From: Halorarum salinum
GTDB taxonomy: Archaea; Halobacteriota; Halobacteria; Halobacteriales; Haloferacaceae
Direction: 5' to 3'
NCBI RefSeq assembly: GCF_013402875.1
Contig: NZ_CP058579.1
Location: forward strand, 310,001-374,000
Length of the DNA stretch: 64,000 nucleotides
Positions 15,776 through 28,149 of this stretch are shown here, in pieces. Within the stretch, counting starts at the first letter, position 1. Every line of letters starts with the position of its first letter. Under the pieces are notes generated by a model. That model saw only the letters and a list, made by a program, of their open reading frames with translations. It was not told the DNA's origin and did not search any database. Made by a program: the position numbers and the translations under genes.

Positions 15776-15848
15776 GCCGGTGTAGCTCAGCTGGCAGAGC
15801 GATTCCTTCGTAAGGAATAGGCCGAGGGTTCAAATCCCTCCACCGGCT
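15776..15848 (+). tRNA. tRNA-Thr (anticodon CGT)
   Basis: A complete cloverleaf is readable: acceptor GCCGGTG pairs with CACCGGC, D-arm GCTC/GAGC, anticodon arm ATTCC-TTCGTAA-GGAAT with anticodon CGT (codon ACG), T-arm GAGGG-TTCAAAT-CCCTC, discriminator T. CCA is not encoded. A CTTATTT box about 30 bp upstream (15739-15745) is a plausible promoter. The 3' end from 15831 is duplicated at 22754 and serves as the integration site of the downstream element; the gene itself is intact. Confidence 0.97.
15831..15848 (+). repeat. attL: 18-bp direct repeat in tRNA-Thr 3' end
   Basis: CAAATCCCTCCACCGGCT covers the T-loop end, T-stem and acceptor 3' strand plus discriminator. It is identical to 22754-22771. 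Confidence 0.85.
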
Positions 15849-16337
15849 TTCGGTCGGCTTCGCCTCCCGAATGACCTTATTCACCCGATAGAGGCCCTGA
15901 CACTTGAATATTCCTTTCTGGGACCCCGTTTCGAGAGACATTTGATTCGGTCTCACCACCCCGTTTTGCCGGAAACATTCGATTCGGTCACCGATACGTG
16001 GCCGCTCCCCCGTGTGGTTTCGAAAAAGGAGTCCGAATACAGCGAGAAGGGCGCTCCGCCTTCTTGTCCGGTCGTGAACCACCACCATCCGGGGCGGGTT
16101 TTGACACCACTCAATTCGCGGGCCGTCGGTTGACGTAACCCGGCTCAAAGGTTCTGACAATCCCCGCGTGCGTATGGGCGATGAGGTTATTCGTGACTGG
16201 CGAGAAGGGCGAGGCAAGGTTCATTTTCGTCAGCCCCAACCCACCTTCGAGCCGTCGCCACGAATGGCGTTACCCCTTCGCTATGTTCTACGGGGTTTCG
16301 TGAGTTGGGTCATTTTAGTGGTGTGGTTGTGGAAGTG
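15849..16337. other. element left end, 489 bp without a confident gene
   Basis: No recognised gene is seen. Two near-identical 15-mers lie 37 bp apart (ACATTTGATTCGGTC near 15940 and ACATTCGATTCGGTC near 15977), which may be recombinase arm or regulatory sites beside attL. A 55-codon ORF (16174-16341, +) with a hydrophobic C-terminal segment (GFVSWVILVVWLW) overlaps the end of the next gene by 4 bp; there is no TATA or RBS in support. The long antisense frame across the tRNA is a known kind of artefact. Confidence 0.4.
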
Positions 16338-17246
16338 TTAGTGTTCTCTACTTATTGTGCCGTCGCATCGCTCTATGAAGCCTTCAAGTTGTTTAACTGC
16401 AATGTTCAGGTCTTCTACGTCTTTATGGTCCATTATTAGATTCCTTGATGGGTGCATGACTTGGTTCCGCAAATCCCTCGCCTTGTTCAGATTATGGTTG
16501 AAATCGCCTTTCCCGTCGTATCCGAGAGAGCTTGTTATTTCTGATGACCGGCTCGCAACATCCTTCAAATCACCGAATCCCATGTATTCGGTCGGATGTA
16601 GCTGGCCCACGTTGTATTCGGCCTTCTTCCATCTGCCAATGCTTACCTCGTCCATGTGCTTGATTAGGTCTTCTCCGTCGGGATGGGTTGCTTCAATGGC
16701 GTGAGATAATACAACTTCAACGCTCGAAATGAGTTGGTAGAGGATTGCCCGAAGCCGCCTATCGTTCAGGTCGGCCAGAGTTATTATGGACAGGCAACTT
16801 CGGTCTTGCAATATTTCATATACTTCGTCATGGTGCTCTGGCCAGTCCTCTAAAAGGTCATACGGGTTGGAATAGACTTTGCTGTTGGTGAGGTCCTTAC
16901 TTGTAGGACTGATTGTTTCTACTACAGAGTCGTTGATGTAGAACCATTCATCAGGATGATATATTAGCAGAAAATCGTGGTCTTTGAAGCGGGATAATTC
17001 CGGAATTATCGGGTCCTCCAGCCATACCCATTGTTCTCTGTTGAGGTCTTTCAGCGAACAGGAATTGCAGTCATAATACTTGCCGTCGGTGGGCAGGGGG
17101 ATGTACGTGTAGTTGTTTGATTCGTAGTGGCCTATATTGTCCCTGTATGTCTCCAAACTCTCGAAATCACAGACTGACGATATTTCGACGTTAATTGTCT
17201 GTGCGTAATCGACGTGGGGTTTCGGCCACGAAGGATTGTCGGTCAC
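16338..17246 (-). CDS. HEPN-like hypothetical protein
   Basis: This is a 302-residue protein encoded by markedly AT-richer DNA than the chromosome, with Lys, Asn and Ile more frequent than in the neighbours. The N-terminal half contains CNSC (a possible metal site with other Cys) and acidic, aromatic-rich sequence. The C-terminal third is helical and ends with NKARDLRNQVMHPSRN, where R260-NQVM-H265 fits the R-x4-6-H motif of HEPN ribonucleases. HEPN proteins often act in anti-phage defence or toxin systems; that role is inferred. It starts with GTG at 17246 and is divergent from the winged-helix gene at 17334. No antitoxin-type nucleotidyltransferase is adjacent. Confidence 0.65.
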   Translation of the reverse strand: MTDNPSWPKPHVDYAQTINVEISSVCDFESLETYRDNIGHYESNNYTYIPLPTDGKYYDCNSCSLKDLNREQWVWLEDPIIPELSRFKDHDFLLIYHPDEWFYINDSVVETISPTSKDLTNSKVYSNPYDLLEDWPEHHDEVYEILQDRSCLSIITLADLNDRRLRAILYQLISSVEVVLSHAIEATHPDGEDLIKHMDEVSIGRWKKAEYNVGQLHPTEYMGFGDLKDVASRSSEITSSLGYDGKGDFNHNLNKARDLRNQVMHPSRNLIMDHKDVEDLNIAVKQLEGFIERCDGTISREH

Positions 17247-17333
17247 AATTGCCCAGAATATTCCGTTGTCAGCACTTAAAGTTTAGAAGATACGGTATCG
17301 TTTGAGAGTCAAAGGCGGCGAGAAAGAGGGCGT

Positions 17334-17579
17334 ATGAGTGACGACGACCGAGACCGCACCGACACAGAGCGCTATACGGAGCAGGTTAGCCCCGATGACG
17401 CCCTTGAGGTGTTCTCCGACCACGAACCCAGAACAGCCAGCGAAATCGCTGACGCCCTCGATGTGTCCCGCAGAACTGCCCTCAACAAGTTATCCGAGCT
17501 GGTCGAGCGGGGAGACCTCCGGCGCAAGAAGGTCGGTGGCCGGGCAGTCGTCTTCTGGAAGCCCACATCAGATGAATAG
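17334..17579 (+). CDS. winged helix-turn-helix regulator
   Basis: This is a small DNA-binding protein of 81 residues. After an acidic N-terminus, residues about 22-78 form a wHTH: DALEVFSDHEPRTASEIADALDVSRRTALNKLSELVERGDLRRKKVGGRAVVFW (described by position 22-75; recognition helix about SRRTALNKLSEL). This type is common on haloarchaeal plasmids and proviruses. The 87-bp AT-rich spacer to the divergent HEPN-like gene suggests it may regulate both. The stop codon at 17577-17579 directly abuts the 8-bp target duplication of the inserted transposon, so any downstream co-transcribed gene was separated by that insertion. Confidence 0.85.
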   Translation: MSDDDRDRTDTERYTEQVSPDDALEVFSDHEPRTASEIADALDVSRRTALNKLSELVERGDLRRKKVGGRAVVFWKPTSDE

Positions 17580-17587
17580 ACTGAGTG

Positions 17588-17603
17588 GGCTCTGTTGAAA
17601 CCC
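17588..17603 (+). repeat. left terminal inverted repeat
   Basis: GGCTCTGTTGAAACCC, preceded immediately by the octamer ACTGAGTG. Confidence 0.85.
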
Positions 17604-17675
17604 TCAAAACATGATAGGTTTGGCACTGTCCGTGGTAAGTGCAGACGAGGAACCTACCGTTGGACAGTTACTGTT

Positions 17676-18137
17676 TCAGTTCTCGGTAATTGTGAGTGTA
17701 TATTCGTAGTCCTGAGAGTGAGGTTCGTCAATCCGTTCACCGATTCGGAACCCGTATTCGTACTCGCCGGGTGCAGCATCAGGAGCAACATGAACTGGCG
17801 CGCTCACGGTAACACTTGTGCAGTCGTTCCATAACCAAATCGGCGGGCATGAATCGGCTTGAAAATCAATATCCGGTGAGGTCTCAACGTCTCCGAATCT
17901 GACTGGAGCATCGGTGGAACCACATCGGTACAATTGCGTGTCGAATTGGAACTCTGTGATGCCTTCCACATGAATTTCTAATATTGCGAAGCCACCCGGA
18001 ACCAGTTCTAACTCATCAACTTGGACGGTCGGTGGCCAACTTCCGTCGTCCGTGCAGGAGGTAGTAGTACCAAGACACCCACCTAATATTCCAGAGATTG
18101 TTGGAACGGTTCTGGCGAGGAACTGACGACGGTTCAT
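17676..18137 (-). CDS. Tat lipoprotein, hypothetical, transposon cargo
   Basis: This 153-residue exported protein starts at the ATG at 18137, which begins a short twin-arginine leader (MNRRQFLARTVPTISG) followed by a lipobox LGGC. The mature part is beta-rich, with several Cys and an Asp/Glu-rich, Ig-like character (VDELELVPGGFAILEIHVEG, APGEYEYGFRIGERID). No family is recognised. It lies wholly within the 705-bp unit bounded by inverted repeats, so it appears to be a passenger gene. Base composition is AT-richer than host genes. A surface role such as exclusion, adhesion or immunity is possible but unsupported. Confidence 0.75.
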   Translation of the reverse strand: MNRRQFLARTVPTISGILGGCLGTTTSCTDDGSWPPTVQVDELELVPGGFAILEIHVEGITEFQFDTQLYRCGSTDAPVRFGDVETSPDIDFQADSCPPIWLWNDCTSVTVSAPVHVAPDAAPGEYEYGFRIGERIDEPHSQDYEYTLTITEN

Positions 18138-18276
18138 AGTTGATGCGTCATCCGAGCGAGTGTGAAACTTTCCCAAGGTCTATACGGGTTTCTGTTGCTG
18201 AGTCGCAGGGCTACCGAAAGACCAATTCGCACCTGTAGTAAACGCGCATTTCGTGCTAATATACCTCTGAAGAATG

Positions 18277-18292
18277 GGATTTCAACAGAGCC
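18277..18292 (-). repeat. right terminal inverted repeat
   Basis: The plus strand reads GGATTTCAACAGAGCC and is followed immediately by the octamer ACTGAGTG. Confidence 0.85.
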
Positions 18293-18550
18293 ACTGAGTG
18301 CTGTTCTGAGGCAGACACCCTCGGACCTACGTAATACTCCTACACCCGAAAGGGGCCTTCCGCCGGAGAAAAACGCCTGACTGCGGTCCGGTACAGTTAA
18401 TACCCTACGATTGGGTTTAATCTTGAGAGAACCGAGGAAGCGTCCCCGGACTGGTCAAGACCGGGTTTTTGCTGGTCCGTGTGCTGATTCTCCTTTCTGG
18501 ACGAGAAGCACGCGCCAACTGGAGCATCTTGGGTTGTCTCACAGACCACT

Positions 18551-19120
18551 ATGTACGACGAGTCACAACCAGAGCCGATTACGGAACCCGACACGCCGAA
18601 CGCTACTAAATTCCACCCCGACGATGAGAACGCGGATTATCCATCAAAGGACAGACTTGACGGAATGAAGTCGTTTATAGTACACTACAGCCGTCTCAGG
18701 GCATTCAACAAAGGAATATTCTCGTACAAGTGGGGAGACAATCCAATGCTCCAGAGACAGGACAGTTTGACGATTCTCGATGCCGTCGCGGGTTACGTTG
18801 AGCTGAATCCCCTTCAGAAGAAGGTCGCCCGCATGGAGATGGACCGGGCACTGTTCCAGAAGTGGAGTTCTCCGGCTGGGATTGACAAGGAATTAATCGC
18901 AGTCTGTATCTGCGCTATCGTCCTTCGGAACGACTGTCGGAGCGACCGGGCCTATCACCCCAACCGAAACGACGAGAACAATGACGAGTTGTTCGTTCAT
19001 CTCATGGAGGGATTCTCTTACCAAGACACAACTGTCCGGCGTTGTATCCAGAAGGTCCAAGGCCACATTCAGTGGTCGTCTGTTGATTGGAAGGAGGCTG
19101 AGACCATGCTTTCGGCCTGA
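18551..19120 (+). CDS. hypothetical protein of haloarchaeal mobile elements
   Basis: The protein has 189 residues with a charged N-terminus and a helical core: LQRQDSLTILDAVAGYVELNPLQKKVARMEMD, then ELIAVCICAIVLRNDCR, then YHPNRND and FSYQDTTVRRCIQKVQ. The helix pattern faintly recalls cyclin-like repeats of TFB, but no zinc ribbon is present and this is not a firm match. I have the impression that proteins with a ..LDAVAG...L..H/Q-K(R).A.. core and an HPN motif recur on haloarchaeal plasmids and proviruses. The ATG at 18551 is the only good start. It is followed by a tandem TATA region. Confidence 0.65.
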   Translation: MYDESQPEPITEPDTPNATKFHPDDENADYPSKDRLDGMKSFIVHYSRLRAFNKGIFSYKWGDNPMLQRQDSLTILDAVAGYVELNPLQKKVARMEMDRALFQKWSSPAGIDKELIAVCICAIVLRNDCRSDRAYHPNRNDENNDELFVHLMEGFSYQDTTVRRCIQKVQGHIQWSSVDWKEAETMLSA

Positions 19121-19126
19121 ATGGAG

Positions 19127-19154
19127 TATATAAACCCCAGACAGGGTATATAAA
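19127..19154 (+). promoter_or_regulatory. two tandem TATATAAA boxes
   Basis: TATATAAA occurs at 19127-19134 and again at 19147-19154, exactly 20 bp apart. Expected start sites are near 19157 and 19177. These are the strongest TATA-like sequences in the window, just after the stop of the preceding gene. Confidence 0.6.
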
Positions 19155-19157
19155 GGG

Positions 19158-20156
19158 TTGTATCTTAATAGTGTTGAGGGGATTCGGAGAGGTGGCCCAG
19201 AGCCCACTATAGGATACCGGGATAGGAGAGCGGAACCGTCTCCCTATTGCGTATCCCAGCGACTGCCGAAACAGGAGGCGATACGTTGTAACGGAGGTCG
19301 ATTTGCTGTCGTTGGTCGCTTCTCGTCCAATACAGATTCTGAAACGGACAAGAAGTCCGGCGCTCCACCACCGCTTCCAGAGGGAACCAATGGGAGTCAG
19401 AACCGGACGACATTATCTCTGTACCTGACTGATATTGTAGTATTCCCCCTAATAGTAGCCAACCATTCACTTCATATCTGCCTCAGAAGTTCATCGACCG
19501 ACTGGTTCCCGAGAGGATTCCTTCCTCAACTCCTGCCCCTGAGGGGTCTGTTACCGATGGGAATGGGAGAATACGGACTCCTCCATTGGATACCCCTCCT
19601 AACCGGGACCACCACTCCTATTCAGACTGTTGTCCCAATAAGTTCCTATGAGGACCGCAGTCCCTTCTCAATCCGCTATCCTCTTCGTGGTACAGCACCC
19701 TTCTTGTCCCATTTTGGTCCCTTTCTGGTACCGCCTTCCTCTATAGGACAACTCCTAAAGGGACTCTCCCTACTACCCCCTTTCCGTAGGTTTTCCCCCT
19801 TCTTCCCTCTCATAGGGTCCTGTAGGAGTAGGGAAAATCAGCCATATCAGGCCAACCCCCGGGTTTGGGGGAGCCATAGACAACCAGTTGCCCCTCAGAC
19901 GTCCGAGGATGCTCCCAGCTGGATTCTTTTTTGGACCGAGGGGCAACCATCATCTAGAGTACAGAATCGAACCACGAGCCTCGTAGGAGCTTACAACGAA
20001 TACGAATCCAACCTACATTATGTCGATATAATTTCTATCGGTTCGGAGTTTGCTCTGCTTTGGTTGGAAGATGCCAGATATACCAAAATAGATTATATGG
20101 AATCTTTCTTACTGTTAGTGGCGGCCCGCCCGTCATTCTGTGTTTGGGTAGCATGA
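19158..20156 (+). CDS. putative orphan protein or long transcript, uncertain
   Basis: A 332-codon frame stays open although the other frames of this AT-rich, CpG-poor stretch contain many stops. It begins at a TTG about 27 bp downstream of the first TATATAAA box, so a leaderless TTG start is possible. The first in-frame ATG is at 19557, which would give 200 residues. The translation is not acidic, is rich in Pro, Ser, Leu and Arg, and matches no family I know. Codon use is unlike host genes. It could instead be a structured non-coding RNA with an accidental frame. I see nothing convincing on the minus strand. Confidence 0.35.
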   Translation: MYLNSVEGIRRGGPEPTIGYRDRRAEPSPYCVSQRLPKQEAIRCNGGRFAVVGRFSSNTDSETDKKSGAPPPLPEGTNGSQNRTTLSLYLTDIVVFPLIVANHSLHICLRSSSTDWFPRGFLPQLLPLRGLLPMGMGEYGLLHWIPLLTGTTTPIQTVVPISSYEDRSPFSIRYPLRGTAPFLSHFGPFLVPPSSIGQLLKGLSLLPPFRRFSPFFPLIGSCRSRENQPYQANPRVWGSHRQPVAPQTSEDAPSWILFWTEGQPSSRVQNRTTSLVGAYNEYESNLHYVDIISIGSEFALLWLEDARYTKIDYMESFLLLVAARPSFCVWVA

Positions 20157-20201
20157 AGAAAACGGCCCCAAAAAGGATGCACGGGGATTATATCAAGCGC
20201 C

Positions 20202-20600
20202 TTAAATAAAGTTCTCCCTCGCGTCGGGTTGGGGTCGTGGCTCTGAGACGATAAACGGGGTAGACCCGAGTTCTTCGACCGTGGGAAGTTCGGGTCTGGG
20301 TCGAGCCGAATTGAGCCGGTCTTTTCCGAAGACGGTTGTGAGGAGGGTCGCAGTCACGAAGTCCCCTTGGCGATATGCGTCGTACAGGTCGCCGTCCCAG
20401 ACGTTCCTGAGGAAGCGGCTCCCTTCGGGAGGAAAGTCCTCGGGGTCCCCGTCAAGGTCGGTATGGGAGACGTAGCAGCGGGCTTCTCGCCGCACAGGAT
20501 TCCGGTTCACATCGTCCGGACTAACCTGAATCAGGGTCAGGAACTCCTCTGAGGCCCCTGCTTCTCGGAAGAACTCAATGTTGTCAGGCGTCAGGTCCAC
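20202..20600 (-). CDS. hypothetical protein, element operon
   Basis: This acidic protein of 132 residues starts at GTG (20600), 12 bp after the stop of the upstream gene, so it is probably co-transcribed with it. It begins MDLTPDNIEFFREAGASEEFL and has a conserved-looking CYVSHTDLDGDPEDFPPEG segment and a WDGDLYDAYRQGD helix. There is no signal peptide, membrane segment or recognised domain. It is the last gene of a minus-strand set formed by the 46-residue protein, the zinc-binding protein and this gene. Confidence 0.6.
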   Translation of the reverse strand: MDLTPDNIEFFREAGASEEFLTLIQVSPDDVNRNPVRREARCYVSHTDLDGDPEDFPPEGSRFLRNVWDGDLYDAYRQGDFVTATLLTTVFGKDRLNSARPRPELPTVEELGSTPFIVSEPRPQPDARENFI

Positions 20601-20612
20601 GTCGGAAGGCGC

Positions 20613-21215
20613 TTAGACTGCATCCTCATTAACGGTCTCGCCACGTCGCCACTTCTGGTACGCATTTCGGTCAATTTCATGGGAGCGTCCATCCGGATGT
20701 TCCGCCCGTGTCATACCGGCTATCTCGTGGATGCCCGTTATCGGGTCGCCACATTCGGGGCAGGAGAATGACGGCGGGTCGTGAGGCGGTTCCTCCGGCC
20801 ATATCTCCTTCCGCCGAGCGATACTCGGACAATGGTTGCAGAAGCCCTTCCGATACGAGAGAATGAGGCTCCATTCGTGGTCGGTTACCTCAGGGAACGG
20901 CTTCAACGAATCTGAGTTGGGGTCGGGGACGTTGACGGTGTGGCTACAAAGGGTGTCGCCGTCTTGAACGATGTGGTCTTTGTAGGAGTCTCGATAGTAG
21001 ATATAGAAGGGGGCTTCTCGATTCCCAACCTCTGTCAGCCATTTCCCAAGCCGAGCCGCGTCCGAAGGCCACATCGCGGGCGCTTCATCTTGGTTCTCCA
21101 CAGAGTAGCCATTCAGATTGCGAACCGTCCCGGTCTCCTCATCCCACCATAGATACCCGGATACGAACTTGTGATAGTCTTCTTGTGTCAAGGTTTGGTT
21201 AGTTTTTGGTTTCAC
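20613..21215 (-). CDS. zinc-binding hypothetical protein
   Basis: This 200-residue protein starts at GTG (21215). The C-terminal half has two CxxC knuckles, FCNHC and CPECGD, so a structural zinc is likely. The N-terminal half is rich in aromatic residues (YHKFVSGYLWWDEETG, FYIYYRDSYKDHI). No known family is recognised. It sits 48 bp after the 46-residue gene and 12 bp before the next gene, implying an operon. Nucleic-acid binding is a reasonable guess from the zinc ribbon only. Confidence 0.65.
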   Translation of the reverse strand: MKPKTNQTLTQEDYHKFVSGYLWWDEETGTVRNLNGYSVENQDEAPAMWPSDAARLGKWLTEVGNREAPFYIYYRDSYKDHIVQDGDTLCSHTVNVPDPNSDSLKPFPEVTDHEWSLILSYRKGFCNHCPSIARRKEIWPEEPPHDPPSFSCPECGDPITGIHEIAGMTRAEHPDGRSHEIDRNAYQKWRRGETVNEDAV

Positions 21216-21263
21216 GCCTTCTCGCCTGATTCAGGCCCTCAGTAGTACCTTCAGCAGTACCAT

Positions 21264-21404
21264 CTACCGGAGGTAGTGTTTGAGGTCAGCATTGAACTCT
21301 CGGAGTTCGGCTTTCTCGCCCTCTGGAAGACGACTATTGTGAAGGGCTTCTTGAATCCGCTCCTGAAGTAGTACGGCCTGTCGCTTGTTCGGCTTCAGCG
21401 CCAT
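21264..21404 (-). CDS. 46-residue basic helical protein
   Basis: This is a short gene beginning MALKPNKRQAVLLQERIQE and ending LREFNADLKHYLR. The composition is highly helical and charged, with Lys/Arg and Glu alternating. The start ATG at 21404 lies about 24-30 bp from a TATA-like GGTTTATGCC (minus strand, near 21428-21434), fitting a leaderless mRNA. It would be the first gene of the three-gene minus-strand set. Function is unknown; small helical proteins of mobile elements are often DNA-binding or regulatory. Confidence 0.55.
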   Translation of the reverse strand: MALKPNKRQAVLLQERIQEALHNSRLPEGEKAELREFNADLKHYLR

Positions 21405-21651
21405 ACTATCCTTTATGGCCCGGTCGGCATAAACCTATCGAATAGTTGAAAGTTCTGGAAGGGGTCTTCTGGGTTTGCTCGTGGGACTACTGACTCGATT
21501 CCCTCGGAACACCGCACCTTCTCGTCTGTTTTGTCTCTATCAACAATCGAAACTTCGGCCCCTCGGGCAGTCTCCTAACATCCATCATGAAACTGATGGT
21601 TTGGTCACGGAACCGCCGAGGACAGGAACGGTCCGTGAGGGGGCCTCAGCG

Positions 21652-22659
21652 CTATATGTCTCGTAGGTGGTCCTTCCGCCGTTCGGCTTTCTCGTCGTAA
21701 GACCCCTTGTCGTAGTGCTTATCCAGAATCTTTCCACTCATGTTCACTCGGTCACCCGTCACATCCTTCGGTTGGCCTGCGTTCCGAGCCGCCGTGACGT
21801 ATCCCCGGCGAAGGGCGTGGGGACTGACCGAGCCGGGACACTTCGAGGCGTGTCCCCATTGAGTCGCTTCGCAGGTATCGGCGTCTCGGTCGAACGGACA
21901 CTTCCCGCCGTTGTGGAAGCACGGGCTGGTAGAGAGGTAGACGTGTTTGGTGATGGTCGTCCGGGATGCACGTCCGTAGTCGGTAGCGATTAGCGGCTTT
22001 CGTCCGTGGTCGTCGGTCACGTCCGGGCGCTGGGTGGAGATGTAGTCGGCCAGAACCTCGGCCACTTCAGGGGTAATCAGAACGTCCCGTTCGCTCTTTG
22101 ATTTCCGCTTGAGTGGCGTTCCCGATTCGGCCCGGTGTCGAATCTCGATAGCGGGACGGCCTTCGTCAAAGTCACCTACGTCGAGGGCACGTAGTCCTCC
22201 AAGTCGCATCCCGGTCTTCCAGAGGGTGAGTACGATTACGTGGCGAAGACTTGCGTAGTCGTACTTGGAGAGGCGTTTGAGGATGGCCTTCGCTTCTTGT
22301 CTTGTGAGGACGTCGTCACATATCTCGTCTTCGTCGGAGACCTTCGTTGTCTGGACGAGTTCGTGGAGACCGACGGGGACGGCCTGTATAGACTCACAGA
22401 ATTGGATGAAGTTCTTGATGGTCCGCATATCGTTGCGGGCCGTTATCGGCTTCACGTCGTCCAGTCGCCATGCCTCGAAGCGGGCTATCTCGTCGCTGTC
22501 TACGTTCCTCATGTCCTCGATGTTCTGGGTGGCGAGGTATTCGAGGAACCGCTTGAGGGCGGTGTTGTAGTTATAGAGGGTCTTCTCGCTGACGTGGGCT
22601 TCTTTCCGTGTCAGGTATCGGCTCTTGGCGTCTCGGGGTGGGGTTGGCTTGAGTTCCAT
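21652..22659 (-). CDS. int: tyrosine recombinase / integrase
   Basis: This site-specific recombinase of 335 residues has an N-terminal SAM-like core-binding domain (about 15-105, with KTLYNYNTALKRFLEYLA) and a catalytic domain from about 115. Catalytic residues seen are R152 in TGMRLGG, H281-x-x-R284 in SPHALRRG, and Y316 in LDKHYDKGS. A four-cysteine insertion (C247, C254, C263, C274) precedes HxxR and may bind zinc, as I recall for many haloarchaeal integrases. It lies 95 bp from attR and is the obvious enzyme for integration into tRNA-Thr. The gene is intact, so excision may still be possible. Confidence 0.93.
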   Translation of the reverse strand: MELKPTPPRDAKSRYLTRKEAHVSEKTLYNYNTALKRFLEYLATQNIEDMRNVDSDEIARFEAWRLDDVKPITARNDMRTIKNFIQFCESIQAVPVGLHELVQTTKVSDEDEICDDVLTRQEAKAILKRLSKYDYASLRHVIVLTLWKTGMRLGGLRALDVGDFDEGRPAIEIRHRAESGTPLKRKSKSERDVLITPEVAEVLADYISTQRPDVTDDHGRKPLIATDYGRASRTTITKHVYLSTSPCFHNGGKCPFDRDADTCEATQWGHASKCPGSVSPHALRRGYVTAARNAGQPKDVTGDRVNMSGKILDKHYDKGSYDEKAERRKDHLRDI

Positions 22660-22753
22660 CGTTGGCCTTGTGTAAGGCCATTCGCAGAGGTGCGTCCGCG
22701 TATGGACCGGCGGTAGCGACGAGGTACAGCGTGCCTCTCGCGTCTAAGGGTTC

Positions 22754-22771
22754 CAAATCCCTCCACCGGCT
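22754..22771 (+). repeat. attR: 18-bp copy of tRNA-Thr 3' end
   Basis: Identical to 15831-15848. The sequence just upstream (AGGGTTC then an extra C) also mimics the tRNA T-loop. Confidence 0.85.
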
Positions 22772-23178: not shown

Positions 23179-26100
23179 ATGCCACCGGACAACGAAGATT
23201 GTGAGAACGAACAGCCATCTGGTAGCCTACCCGCCAACGAGCGTACCGACGGCGGGGGTAAGCACGTCTTACGCGAACTGGAGGAGGAAGGGGACGAGTC
23301 GACCTATCCGCGCCGGACGTTCCTGAAGGGAAGCGGCGCCCTCGCCGCGAGCGCGGGGCTGGCGAACGGAACCGCGATCGCGGCCGAGAACGGCCTCGCG
23401 GGCGACGTCCCCGAGGAACCCGAGGACGGGCAGGTCCGCCACTTCGAGGTCCACGCCATCGAGGTCGACCTCGTCTACAACCGCTTCGGGCTTCACCAAC
23501 CCAACGCCGCGATCCTCGTGCTGAAGGAGGATCTGAAGGAGGCCAAGCGGCTCTCCGGGAAGGTCCCGTGCGCGAACAGCGTGGTCCTCCAGGACGAGCA
23601 GGAGGAGGCGTTCTGCGAGGACATCCCGAAGAAGTTGCGTGCGGACGGCGACACGCGGGTCCTCCAGCCGCTGTCGCTGCGCGCCAACTTCGGCGACGTG
23701 ATCGAGGTCGAGTTCCACAACGACCTCGACCGCCGCGCGTCGATCCACCAGACTGCGCTCCCCTACGAGGTCCGGGAGTCCGACGGGATGAACGTCGGGG
23801 AGAACCCCGACACGACGGTCGCGCCCGGCGACTCCATCACCTACCGCTGGGACGCCCGCCGCCTCGGGACGCACTTCTTCCTCGACGGGGCGAACCAGGC
23901 GTACGACAGCGCCGACGAGCCCCCCCAGAAGGCGAACCTTACCGCCCGCGGCCTGTTCGGCTCGGTCTCGGTCCTCCCGAAGGGGACGACCTGGACCGAC
24001 CCGTACACGGGGAAGGAGACGCAGGGTCGCGTCCAGGCCGACGTCCACGTCCCCGAGGACGTCCCGGAGGAGGCCGTCGATCGCGGCTTCGTGCCGGGCC
24101 TGAGCTACCGGCAGATCCTCCTTCACTACCACACGCCGGAGGGGATCGTGACCCGGGACGGCGATCAGCTCACGTTCCCGGACAGCGACGAACCGCAGAT
24201 GGTCCACGCCATCAACTACCGCGCGGACCCCACCGGCAACCGCATCCCGCCGCTCGACGACCCGATAGAGCGGGAGGCGTTCTACAACTCGTGGGTCCAC
24301 GGCGACCCCGGCGGCGGCGACAACGCCTACCCGATGTACCTCGGCGACCCGGTCAAGACCGTCTCCGTCGGGGCGTCCATCGAGGAGAACCACGTCCACC
24401 ACCTCCACGGCCACCGCTGGAAGGAGACGCCGCCGGACGAGCGGTCCGACACGATCGACTCACAGACGCTGGGGCTGGGCGCGGTGTACGACGAGCCGTT
24501 CACCACGGCGTTCGGGACGGCCGACGGATCGATCGAAGACCTGGAGACGGTCCGCCCGGACATGACCTTCGAGGAGGCGTTCCGGACCGGCGCAGGCGGC
24601 GCCCACGGGAGCCCCGGCGACTACCTGTTCCACTGCCACCTGTTCCCGCACTACGGCGAGGGGATGTGGGGGCTCGTGCGCGTGCTCGACAAGGAGCGAG
24701 AGGGATTACAGAAACTCCCGGACAACGACCCGCCCATCCCCGCCGACTCCGACGTCGAGGGGTTCCCGGAGTTCATCCCCGGCGAGTTCGGCGAGGCGCC
24801 GCCGTACCCGCCGTACGGCGCCGCGGGCCTCGACGACTTCCGCGACCCGGAACCCGACGAGGAGGATGCGCTCACCCGCAACGGCGACGATATCCTCCCG
24901 GGCGCCCCCTACACTGACCCCTGCGAACCCGACATCGAGGGGTTCGAACCCGACGTCCAGATCGAGGGAATGAAACGCGACTACACCATCGTGGCGCTCC
25001 CCGCGGACGTCGTCTACAACGACGACGGCCACCACGACCCCAACGGCATCGTCTACGTCCTGGAGAAGTACCGCGAGGTCGACCCGGACACGGGGAAGGT
25101 CCTCGTCGACGAGGACGTGAACGACGTCGAACTGATAAAGGAGGGGAAGCTGAACCCCGAGCCGCTGGTCGTCCGCGCGAACGTCGGCGACTGCGTCGAC
25201 GTCACCTTCAAGAACGAGGTGACCGACGAGAACCTCGCGGCCATCCCGGCCGACAGGTTCCCGGAGGGCGACGACGACGCCTTGCCCGAGAGCGTCCCCG
25301 TCGAGGAGGGCGGCAAGTCGACCCACATCCACTTCGTCTCCTACGACGTGCTCGGCTCCGACTCGCTCGCCACCGGGTTCAACTACCGCCAGGACGCCCA
25401 GCCCGGCGAGAGGAACTTCTTCCGGTGGTTCGCCGACGAGGAGGGGACCATCTTCTTCCACGACCACATCACCGGCATCGAGGACGTGATGCACGGCTCG
25501 TTCTGCTCGCTCGTGGTCGAGCCGCCGAACTCGGAGTGGTTCGATCCCTACAGCGGCGACCCCGTTCGCAGCGGGACGCAGGCCATCATCGAGAACCCCG
25601 ACGGCGAGGACTTCCGCGAGTTCGCGCTCGCCTACCACGACTTCGCCCAGCTCGTCGACCGCGACGGCGAACTCGTCAACGACGACGCGGAACACAACGA
25701 GAACGCGGGCGTGATGGGCATCAACTACCGGAACACGCCGTTCCACATCCGCGACGACTGCGACCCGGCGTACGTGTTCTCCTCGTTCGTCCACGGCGAC
25801 CCGTCGACGCCGCTGCTCGAGACCTACGAGGGCGACCCGGTCCGGATCCGGCTCTGGATGGGCGCCTACGAGGAGCAGCACACCTTCCACGTCAACGGCC
25901 GCCACTTCGAGTCCGAGGGCAACCATCCGGAGGAGTCGACCTCCCAGATCCTCGGCACGTCCGAGGCGTTCACGCTCGACCTGAACCCCGAGGGCGATGG
26001 GATGGAGGGGGCGGACATGGACGCGTTCACCGAGCTGGGGAACCCGGCGGGGCTACCCGTCAGGGACCACCTGTACGGCTCCCCCATCATCGACGACCTC

Positions 26101-28149
26101 TGGGAGGGGATGTGGGGGATCCACCGGCGGTTCGGCGCGGCGACCGACCACCTCCAGCCCCTGCCGGACCGGGGGCTCCCGGACGAAGAGATCACCGAGG
26201 AGGAGCTGAAGGAGATGGGCCACCCGGCGCCGTTCGCCGACTTCGACTGGACGGAGTTCGGGCACCGGGCGAGGCTGCTGTACGACGACGACGACGACCG
26301 GGAGTTCCCGCCTGACAAGGACGAGCGGCAGAACGACGAGATCACGGGCGACCCGCCCGAGCGGGCGCCCGACCCGGGCGACCCGTGTCCCGACGACGCG
26401 CCGGTCCGCACGTTCGACGTCAGCGCCGTCGACGCCGAGATCGAGTACAACGACCACGGCGACCGGGACGAGTTCGGGGTCGTCTACACCCTCGACGAGC
26501 ACGCCGACGACGTCCGCGACGGGGACTCCCCCGTCCCGCTCACGCTCTGGGCGAACCTGGGCGACTGCATCGAGGTCAACTTCACCAACCGCGTCGACCC
26601 CGACGAGTTCGAGGACCACGCCCACCCCGAGATGCGGACCGAGCACCCCTGGGACCGGTCGAAGCGGATGTCGATGCACGCGACGCACCTGGAGTACGAC
26701 GTGCTAGGTTCGGACGGCGCGACGGTCGGGTTCAACTGGGACCAGACGGTCGCCCCCGGCGAGACGATCACCTACCGGTGGTTCGTCGACGAGGAGACGC
26801 CCAGTTCCATCTTCTGGGACTACGCGGACGTCCGGAGCACCCGCCACCACGGCGCCTACGGCAACGTCATCGCGACGCCCCCCGAGGCGGAGCTGGTCGA
26901 CCCGAGGACCGCCGAGCCGACGCCGCAGGGGCTCTCCACGGAGGCCATGGTGAAGACCCCCGACGGTCCCGACCAGCGCCTGGTCAACCTGCTGTTCGCG
27001 GACGCGCAGTTCATCCTCAACGAGGACGACCCCGACGACTGCGTGGTGCCGCCGGGCCACGACGAGGAGGTCGACCCGGACGACCCGTGTAACCAACTCG
27101 GCGACCCCGAGGACCACGGCTACATGGCGATCAACTACCGCGCGGAACCGTTCGTCCGGCGGTTCGAGGAGGACGACGACCAGTACCAGGTGTACGACTC
27201 CGACGTCCACGGCGACCCCGCGACGCCGCTGCCGCGCGCGCTGCTCGGCGACCCGGTCAGCCTCGTGGTGGGCCAGGGCGCCGACAAGGCCCGCGGGATC
27301 TCGTTCCACCTCGCGGCCCACCAGTGGCCCCGCTTCGAGGACGTCGACGCGTCGCCCGAGATCGGCGTCGACGACCGCCACATCGTCGGGCGGTCCGACG
27401 AGCGCGACCTCCTCGACGACGCCGGCGGCCTCGCGGAGAGCGTCGGCGACCACATCTACCAGGAGATGAAACAGCGGCGGCGCCTCGAGGCCGGCGCCTG
27501 GGGCATCTTCCGGGTGCGCGAGGACCCCGAGGACTTTCGGACGCCGGTCCAGCCGCTCCCGGACCGGGCGACGGGCATCCCGGTCGACGAGCGGATCGGC
27601 TGGGTGACCGCCCGGGGCGACCTCACCGGCGACGGGACGAAGGATCTGGTCGTCCTCGTCCCGGACAGCGTCCGCGGGTCCGAGGACGCCTCGGCGCTGT
27701 ACGTGTTCCTCGGCCCGGTCGACGAGAAGTCGATCACGGACCTGACCGGCGCCGACGTCGAAGTCGTCGGGACGCTCCACGACGACGAGCACGAGCACGG
27801 GACCGCCACGGTCCGGCTGAGCGACGACCTCGGGATCGACGACCTCGACACGCTTCTGGGGCTCGTCACCGACGCCACGGTCGCCGTCGGGAACTGCGAC
27901 TCCCGGCGGAAGTCGGAGAACCCGCTCTCGAAGCTCGAGTTCGACGCGGGCGAGAAACGCTCGGGCGACGTCGACGTCACGCTCGCGCGCGGTGGCGACG
28001 GCGAGAGTCGCAAGGGCGACCGGAGCGAGGAGGTCGCCATCGACGTCACGGCCGCGGACGTCGACGAGGACGGCTCGCTCGAACTCGCGATCGACCTCGA
28101 GGACGGCCCCCGCGTCGTCGTCGACGGCTGCGAGTCGCTGTTCGGGTAG
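23179..28149 (+). CDS. giant three-unit multicopper oxidase, Tat-exported
   Basis: This 1656-residue protein has a Tat leader (YPRRTFLKGSG, RR at 45-46, cleavage near 68). Three homologous units follow (about 80-510, 590-1010, 1070-1460), each with an INYR segment and a VHGDP segment. Unit 1 ends with the copper motifs HVHHLHGH (405-412) and HCHLFPH...M (485-496), normally C-terminal. Unit 2 opens with the HxH pairs THIHF (716, 718) and FFHDH (761, 763), normally N-terminal. Unit 3 keeps only scattered His. One trinuclear site could thus form between units 1 and 2. A GDLTGDGTKDLVVLV repeat near 1480 and a Gly/Asp-rich tail complete it. Large oxidases of this kind include manganese oxidases; the substrate here is unknown. 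Confidence 0.88.
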   Translation: MPPDNEDCENEQPSGSLPANERTDGGGKHVLRELEEEGDESTYPRRTFLKGSGALAASAGLANGTAIAAENGLAGDVPEEPEDGQVRHFEVHAIEVDLVYNRFGLHQPNAAILVLKEDLKEAKRLSGKVPCANSVVLQDEQEEAFCEDIPKKLRADGDTRVLQPLSLRANFGDVIEVEFHNDLDRRASIHQTALPYEVRESDGMNVGENPDTTVAPGDSITYRWDARRLGTHFFLDGANQAYDSADEPPQKANLTARGLFGSVSVLPKGTTWTDPYTGKETQGRVQADVHVPEDVPEEAVDRGFVPGLSYRQILLHYHTPEGIVTRDGDQLTFPDSDEPQMVHAINYRADPTGNRIPPLDDPIEREAFYNSWVHGDPGGGDNAYPMYLGDPVKTVSVGASIEENHVHHLHGHRWKETPPDERSDTIDSQTLGLGAVYDEPFTTAFGTADGSIEDLETVRPDMTFEEAFRTGAGGAHGSPGDYLFHCHLFPHYGEGMWGLVRVLDKEREGLQKLPDNDPPIPADSDVEGFPEFIPGEFGEAPPYPPYGAAGLDDFRDPEPDEEDALTRNGDDILPGAPYTDPCEPDIEGFEPDVQIEGMKRDYTIVALPADVVYNDDGHHDPNGIVYVLEKYREVDPDTGKVLVDEDVNDVELIKEGKLNPEPLVVRANVGDCVDVTFKNEVTDENLAAIPADRFPEGDDDALPESVPVEEGGKSTHIHFVSYDVLGSDSLATGFNYRQDAQPGERNFFRWFADEEGTIFFHDHITGIEDVMHGSFCSLVVEPPNSEWFDPYSGDPVRSGTQAIIENPDGEDFREFALAYHDFAQLVDRDGELVNDDAEHNENAGVMGINYRNTPFHIRDDCDPAYVFSSFVHGDPSTPLLETYEGDPVRIRLWMGAYEEQHTFHVNGRHFESEGNHPEESTSQILGTSEAFTLDLNPEGDGMEGADMDAFTELGNPAGLPVRDHLYGSPIIDDLWEGMWGIHRRFGAATDHLQPLPDRGLPDEEITEEELKEMGHPAPFADFDWTEFGHRARLLYDDDDDREFPPDKDERQNDEITGDPPERAPDPGDPCPDDAPVRTFDVSAVDAEIEYNDHGDRDEFGVVYTLDEHADDVRDGDSPVPLTLWANLGDCIEVNFTNRVDPDEFEDHAHPEMRTEHPWDRSKRMSMHATHLEYDVLGSDGATVGFNWDQTVAPGETITYRWFVDEETPSSIFWDYADVRSTRHHGAYGNVIATPPEAELVDPRTAEPTPQGLSTEAMVKTPDGPDQRLVNLLFADAQFILNEDDPDDCVVPPGHDEEVDPDDPCNQLGDPEDHGYMAINYRAEPFVRRFEEDDDQYQVYDSDVHGDPATPLPRALLGDPVSLVVGQGADKARGISFHLAAHQWPRFEDVDASPEIGVDDRHIVGRSDERDLLDDAGGLAESVGDHIYQEMKQRRRLEAGAWGIFRVREDPEDFRTPVQPLPDRATGIPVDERIGWVTARGDLTGDGTKDLVVLVPDSVRGSEDASALYVFLGPVDEKSITDLTGADVEVVGTLHDDEHEHGTATVRLSDDLGIDDLDTLLGLVTDATVAVGNCDSRRKSENPLSKLEFDAGEKRSGDVDVTLARGGDGESRKGDRSEEVAIDVTAADVDEDGSLELAIDLEDGPRVVVDGCESLFG

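What the first reader, a model, noticed from the sequence alone, without database searches (positions are those of the whole stretch)
17580..18300. Transposase-less 705-bp unit with IS6-like ends and a lipoprotein cargo
The ends GGCTCTGTTGAAA(C/T)CC are inverted repeats (15 of 16) and both are flanked by the same octamer ACTGAGTG, the hallmark of a transposition event. Inside there is no transposase, only a Tat lipoprotein gene. This is neither a plain IS nor a classic gene-free MITE: it looks like a cargo-bearing non-autonomous transposon, nested in an integrative element and inserted directly after the stop codon of a regulator. Passenger lipoproteins on minimal transposons are not something I know to be described in haloarchaea.
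Basis: partly seen in the sequence, partly recalled or inferred. Interest (0 to 1): 0.8.

Follow-up and report, generated by a model that had tools for sequence, protein, structure and literature searches.

The report
Lipoprotein-carrying transposon lacking its own transposase
A 705-base piece of archaeal DNA carries one surface-lipoprotein gene between the ends of a common jumping gene (an IS5-type element, not IS6 as first thought), and it belongs to a widespread, apparently undescribed family of such 'cargo only' elements in salt-loving archaea.

Summary
Window 17588-18292 is a 705-bp unit with 15/16 terminal inverted repeats and an exact 8-bp target duplication (ACTGAGTG). It holds one intact gene, a 153-aa Tat lipoprotein, and no transposase. 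It sits in a 6.9-kb integrative element bounded by an 18-bp tRNA-Thr repeat.
The IS6 assignment is wrong. IS6 elements in these genomes have other ends (GGCGGTGTTCAGATAAGG). The unit's ends are those of haloarchaeal IS5-family elements (ISHxa2/ISHla2 relatives, 8-bp duplications), and one intact relative (64% identical) is in the same genome.
The unit is one of many. I collected 72 elements with duplications of at least 7/8: 14 with an IS5 transposase and 58 without. Of these, 43 transposase-less elements have exact 8/8 duplications, and 19 of them carry a credible gene (lipoproteins, small membrane proteins, an Mrr-like nuclease). Precise empty sites exist for several, though not for the window unit. 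The lipoprotein gene recurs in relatives under purifying selection, in one case with both ends at the same offsets.
Best reading: a mobile insertion cassette moved in trans by IS5-family transposase. The kind is known in bacteria; this archaeal family and its cargo appear new. Movement itself was not observed.

The parts
17580..17587 (.). left copy of the 8-bp target-site duplication (ACTGAGTG)
   Evidence: sequence
17588..17603 (+). left terminal inverted repeat GGCTCTGTTGAAACCC
   Evidence: same 13-mer starts IS5-family elements
17588..17647 (+). L-type end region (CCCTC-N6-TGATAGG), as in other transposase-less elements
   Evidence: closest by eye: E058
17676..18137 (-). cargo gene: 153-aa Tat lipoprotein (RRQFL signal, lipobox LGGC, C21), predicted beta-sandwich
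18233..18292 (-). R-type end region (GGCTCTGTTGAAATCCCATTCTTCAGA), like the R end of transposase-bearing IS5-family elements
18277..18292 (-). right terminal inverted repeat (reads GGCTCTGTTGAAATCC inward)
18293..18300 (.). right copy of the 8-bp target-site duplication (ACTGAGTG)
   Evidence: sequence
15831..22771 (.). host of the insertion: 6.94-kb integrative element between 18-bp direct repeats (tRNA-Thr 3' end at 15831-15848; copy at 22754-22771), tyrosine integrase 21652-22659

Best explanation
The unit is a non-autonomous, cargo-bearing insertion element (a mobile insertion cassette) of a haloarchaeal IS5-family group related to ISHxa2/ISHla2. It carries a gene for a surface lipoprotein and the two end types of that IS group: an L-type and an R-type end sharing GGCTCTGTTGAAA(T/C)CC. 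An IS5-family DDE transposase encoded elsewhere would bind both ends, cut the unit out or copy it, and insert it with an 8-bp target duplication, here right after the stop codon of a small regulator in an integrative element. Shown: ends, duplication, shared end architecture on transposase-bearing elements, precise empty sites for sister elements, an intact IS5 transposase in the same genome, conservation of the cargo gene. Inferred: that this transposase (or a relative) moved this unit, and that the lipoprotein benefits the host.
For: Ends and 8/8 TSD. Transposase-bearing IS5-family elements (NCBIfam NF033579 IS5_2) have the exact 13-mer just upstream of the transposase gene, the matching end on the other side, and 8-bp duplications: L104, L094 and L099 at 8/8, plus an ISHxa2-annotated copy and one in Halobacterium salinarum. 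50 of 55 elements with 8/8 TSDs are polar, with one L-type and one R-type end, and the first 50-60 bp of the R end share a consensus in elements with and without transposase. Census: 58 transposase-less versus 14 transposase-bearing elements. Empty sites, ungapped or nearly so and crossing the junction with one octamer: E009 in nine or more IS6 transposase gene copies at up to 96.6%, E010, cargo-bearing E067 at 91.7%, and transposase-bearing E005 and E007. A transposase-less and a transposase-bearing element share a homologous passenger (E039/E042, 56%). The lipoprotein is 58-66% identical in 12 other genomes; L033 has both ends at the same offsets from the gene (152 and 89 bp, against 155 and 91 here), and several others have one end or a decayed end. 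Similarity of L033 and L036 (90.7%) stops near the ends. Cargo dN/dS is 0.14-0.36. One intact full-length IS5 transposase, 64% identical, is in the same genome.
Against: No empty site for this particular insertion was found among 170 genomes of the family. The in-genome IS5 element (L087) has slightly different ends (12/13 and 11/13 matches) and no TSD. Only L033 among the homologues keeps both good ends, and it has no TSD. Three homologues (L041-L043) sit at one syntenic chromosomal place without ends. No transposition was observed.
Confidence: 0.93

Rival explanations
1. It is an IS6-family derivative: IS6 ends with a passenger gene, moved by IS6 transposase.
For: 8-bp target duplication is also typical of IS6; IS6 genes are common in the relatives; two IS6 genes have a GGCTCTGTTGAAA end downstream (L064, L071).
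Against: Full IS6 elements in these genomes are 698 bp with ends GGCGGTGTTCAGATAAGG/TTATCTGAACACTACC and 8/8 TSDs in several. The end near the IS6 gene in L071 is not the mate of any IS6 end there. The own genome has only weak or broken IS6 matches.
Confidence: 0.02
2. It is a decayed autonomous IS5-family element whose transposase gene was deleted, leaving a passenger gene that was originally carried next to the transposase (a transporter IS turned cassette).
For: Transposase-bearing elements of the group carry passengers between the transposase and the R end, including a Tat lipoprotein (L094) and an RDD-family gene in the ISHxa2 copy; E039/E042 share a passenger with and without transposase.
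Against: The L-end sequence beyond about 18 bp differs between the two classes (TGATATATTCTG...GTCAATACAG versus GTTACAGGTTCG...), so the cassettes look like their own lineage of ends rather than simple internal deletions. No transposase-bearing element with this lipoprotein was found.
Confidence: 0.25
3. The end motif is a host sequence feature (regulatory element or non-coding RNA) and the octamer match is coincidence.
For: Solo ends without a partner exist in the genome, and some lie just upstream of genes.
Against: Exact octamers at 23 of 74 pairs versus 0 in each shifted control; precise empty sites; same ends on transposase-bearing elements.
Confidence: 0.01

Closest known systems
Mobile insertion cassettes (MIC231 of Bacillus cereus, IS231/IS4 family)
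   Same: IS ends, no transposase, one passenger gene, presumed mobilisation in trans by an intact related IS (concept in PMC3129680; MIC231 references in PMC2266710 and PMC6542083)
   Different: IS5-family ends and 8-bp duplications; archaeal hosts; cargo is a Tat lipoprotein, and in sister units small membrane proteins or nucleases
ISHxa2 / ISHla2 and relatives (IS5 family, Halobacteria)
   Same: identical terminal 13 bp or more, same R-end region, 8-bp duplication, passenger genes in several copies
   Different: they encode a 273-aa IS5 transposase; the unit does not, and its L end diverges after about 18 bp
ISH2 (531-bp ORF-bearing MITE of Halobacterium, moved in trans by ISH8) and MITEHsal2 (411-413 bp, 6-8-bp duplication)
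   Same: haloarchaeal, transposase-less; ISH2 has a small ORF reported as expressed (PMC3119063, PMC10264941)
   Different: ISH2 belongs with ISH8 (10-bp duplication); the cargo is not a lipoprotein; MITEHsal2's ends were not compared here
Transporter IS (tIS, IS with passenger genes)
   Same: the transposase-bearing sisters fit this description (concept in PMC3129680; only one IS6 example, ISDsp3, in PMC7986276)
   Different: the unit itself lacks the transposase

Membership tests
Mobile insertion cassette (MIC) | terminal inverted repeats of a known IS family | tested here: met
   (IS5 family)
Mobile insertion cassette (MIC) | target-site duplication of the length made by that IS | tested here: met
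   8/8 ACTGAGTG; cognate IS elements 8/8
Mobile insertion cassette (MIC) | no transposase, at least one intact passenger gene | tested here: met
Mobile insertion cassette (MIC) | mobilised in trans by the cognate transposase | not testable with these tools
   an intact relative is present; movement not shown
IS5-family element (full insertion sequence) | encodes an IS5-family DDE transposase | tested here: not met
   no transposase inside; hence a derivative, not an IS
IS6 family | IS6-type terminal repeats | tested here: not met
   IS6 ends in these genomes differ
MITE (classic, non-coding) | short, non-coding, no passenger | tested here: not met
   conserved 153-aa gene, dN/dS 0.14-0.36 across homologues

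The most novel reading that the evidence does not exclude
Halobacteria share a class-wide mobile cassette system in which one IS5-family transposase group trades a pool of small surface and membrane-protein genes (lipoproteins, multi-pass membrane proteins, occasionally nucleases) as transposase-less units with a fixed L/R end pair, so that these genes spread as selectable cargo rather than as hitch-hiking debris.
Probability: 0.3. Interest if true: 0.75.

Novelty: new member of a known kind. Interest (0 to 1): 0.5.

Why it matters
It identifies a concrete archaeal counterpart of bacterial mobile insertion cassettes, with a defined end pair, a probable cognate transposase and dozens of examples. 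These could be used to find many unannotated cargo elements, to explain how small surface-protein genes move between haloarchaea, and to test trans-mobilisation in genetically tractable hosts. It also corrects the family assignment from IS6 to IS5.

Tried and rejected
IS6 as cognate family: rejected from the ends of IS6 elements. Second copy of the unit or lipoprotein in the same genome: none. The 9.0-kb and 5.1-kb convergent end pairs in the own genome as composite transposons: outer flanks do not match; smaller elements with 7/8 octamers lie inside them. Empty site for the window unit: not found in 170 genomes. Viral contigs: no R-end 27-mer; no lipoprotein match in phage records. Cargo function: no Pfam or PADLOC match; AlphaFold model of moderate to low confidence (pLDDT 63.5), beta-sandwich with only weak PDB matches (TM 0.54 or less); the weak sequence hits to Tako8 and WD-repeat proteins span about 35 residues and were discounted. 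Preferred direction of cargo relative to the R end: no clear bias. A few 7/8 pairs in the census (for example E012, E032) are nested or probably chance and are not used as evidence.

Full report
OBSERVATION. The unit is 17588-18292 (705 bp), its inverted repeats match at 15 of 16 positions, and ACTGAGTG lies directly outside both ends at 17580-17587 and 18293-18300. The regulator ORF ends at 17579. Inside there is one credible gene, a 153-aa protein on the minus strand with a twin-arginine motif and a lipobox, without a Pfam match. The unit lies in a 6.94-kb integrative element: an 18-bp copy of the tRNA-Thr 3' end is found at 15831-15848 and 22754-22771, with a tyrosine integrase beside the second copy.

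WHICH FAMILY. In the window's genome the 13-mer GGCTCTGTTGAAA occurs 9 times exactly and its reversed control never (its 1-mismatch search also gave no controls). In 12 genomes of the same family it occurs in every one, again with no controls. IS6 transposase genes in relatives are bounded by GGCGGTGTTCAGATAAGG and TTATCTGAACACTACC, element length about 698 bp, several with perfect 8-bp duplications, so the ends of our unit are not IS6 ends. IS5-family transposases of a 273-aa group (NCBIfam NF033579) start about 50 bp inside an exact GGCTCTGTTGAAATCC end, have the partner end 1.4-2.5 kb away and 8-bp duplications: L104 TGCTATTC, L099 GATTATTT, L094 GCTTTTTG, an ISHxa2-annotated copy CACCGTCT, a Halobacterium salinarum copy CCCAGGGT. 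The closest named elements are ISHxa2 and ISHla2 (94% and 92% protein identity to the L094 transposase). The genome of the window holds one intact transposase of this group, 64% identical over its full length, in an element with slightly altered ends.

NOT ALONE. Using exact end positions I fetched loci around them and added 89 stretches from a scan of about 85,000 prokaryotic species genomes with the R-end 27-mer; the titles listed are all haloarchaeal. No viral contig matched. A script that pairs convergent ends and compares flanking octamers gave 72 elements with at least 7/8 matching octamers; 14 carry an IS5 transposase and 58 do not. In the earlier, smaller set 23 of 74 pairs had 8/8 octamers and none did at shifted offsets. 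Among elements with 8/8 octamers, 50 of 55 are polar: one L-type and one R-type end. The R end (consensus near GGCTCTGTTGAAATCCTATTCTTCAGACATATTCTCGCCTGAAACAGCCGGTCG) is the same with and without transposase, whereas the L end of transposase-less elements has its own continuation. In the window unit the end at 18292 is R-type and the end at 17588 is L-type. The R end also occurs in 77 plasmid records, the listed ones all haloarchaeal.

CARGO. Of 43 transposase-less elements with exact octamers, 19 hold a credible gene by size, charge, hydrophobicity or lipobox: three with lipoproteins (window unit, L128, L220), many with small multi-pass membrane proteins, one with an Mrr-type restriction endonuclease (L160; PF04471), and others. 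The rest look like non-coding MITEs. Transposase-bearing relatives also carry passengers between transposase and R end, such as a 154-aa Tat lipoprotein in L094, small membrane proteins, and an RDD-family gene in the ISHxa2 copy. One membrane-protein passenger is shared between a transposase-less and a transposase-bearing element (E039/E042, 56% identity).

EMPTY SITES. Joining the flanks with one octamer removed and searching the fetched loci gave uninterrupted sites for E009 (inside an IS6 transposase gene, uninterrupted in nine or more other copies, up to 96.6% over 232 bp without gaps), E010, the cargo-bearing E067, and the transposase-bearing E005 and E007 (E010 sites also). For the window unit the surrounding integrative element has no close relative in 170 genomes, so no empty site could be shown.

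HISTORY OF THE LIPOPROTEIN. Homologues with 58-66% identity over the full length occur in 12 other genomes of the family, two of them on plasmids of Halorubrum trapanicum and Haloprofundus halobius. L033 has both ends at the same offsets from the gene as in the window; L034, L036 and L040 have one recognisable end at the same offset, and L035 has degraded ones. L033 and L036 are 90.7% identical across the unit and unrelated beyond it, as expected for insertion at different places. L041-L043 share 3.3 kb of synteny without ends, a resident chromosomal version. Synonymous changes exceed replacement changes (dN/dS 0.14-0.36), so the protein is maintained. The predicted fold is a beta-sandwich of moderate to low confidence without a clear solved relative; I infer a surface-exposed binding or structural domain.

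MECHANISM. Most likely an IS5-family transposase acting in trans recognises the L/R end pair and inserts the unit with an 8-bp staggered cut. Shown: ends, duplications, shared end architecture, empty sites of sister elements, presence of an intact transposase. Inferred: that this transposase acts on this unit, and whether it moves by excision or copying.

WHAT IS KNOWN. Cassettes with IS ends, no transposase and a passenger gene are called mobile insertion cassettes, and IS with passengers transporter IS (PMC3129680; MIC231 references in PMC2266710, PMC6542083). In haloarchaea, MITEs moved in trans and an ORF-bearing one, ISH2, are described (PMC3119063, PMC10264941). Open-access searches found no paper on passenger-bearing IS5 elements or lipoprotein cassettes in haloarchaea and none with this end sequence in such a context. 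ISfinder and subscription papers could not be searched. I therefore call it a new member of a known kind, with the archaeal, class-wide family as the interesting part.

Noticed in passing
window 15831-15848 and 22754-22771: 18-bp direct repeat of the tRNA-Thr 3' end bounds a 6.94-kb integrative element with a tyrosine integrase (21652-22659); most other genes in it have no assigned function.
   Followed up: partly
L122 516-3954 (Halorubrum trapanicum, G152:C3): A 3.4-kb element with the same ends and an exact 8-bp duplication carries a gene resembling a type 2 isopentenyl-diphosphate isomerase (FMN_dh domain) and a second, unrelated-looking transposase.
   Followed up: partly
L160 153-1528; L173 1927-4225: Mrr-type restriction endonuclease genes as cargo of transposase-less elements (L160 with 8/8 octamers; L173 pair only 7/8).
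   Followed up: partly
L114 (Halorubrum saccharovorum contig 57): Two transposase-less elements with exact duplications lie 121 bp apart within a 1.7-kb stretch, together with a further lipoprotein gene: a small hot spot.
   Followed up: no
L316 (Halorubrum trapanicum plasmid pCBA1232-01): A row of short hypothetical genes interspersed with these ends surrounds the lipoprotein homologue; may be a cassette cluster.
   Followed up: no
L094, L123, L100, L124 (Halorubrum saccharovorum contig 57): Element ends are duplicated around an N at about 90 bp distance, probably an assembly artefact at IS boundaries.
   Followed up: no
window 23179-28149: 1656-aa Tat-signal protein that by eye consists of repeated multicopper-oxidase-like domains, just outside the integrative element.
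   Followed up: no
L016 3914-5691; L004 536-1513 (own genome): Two further transposase-less candidates in the window's genome with 7/8 octamers, carrying MgtE/CBS-domain and TrkA_C-domain membrane protein genes.
   Followed up: partly
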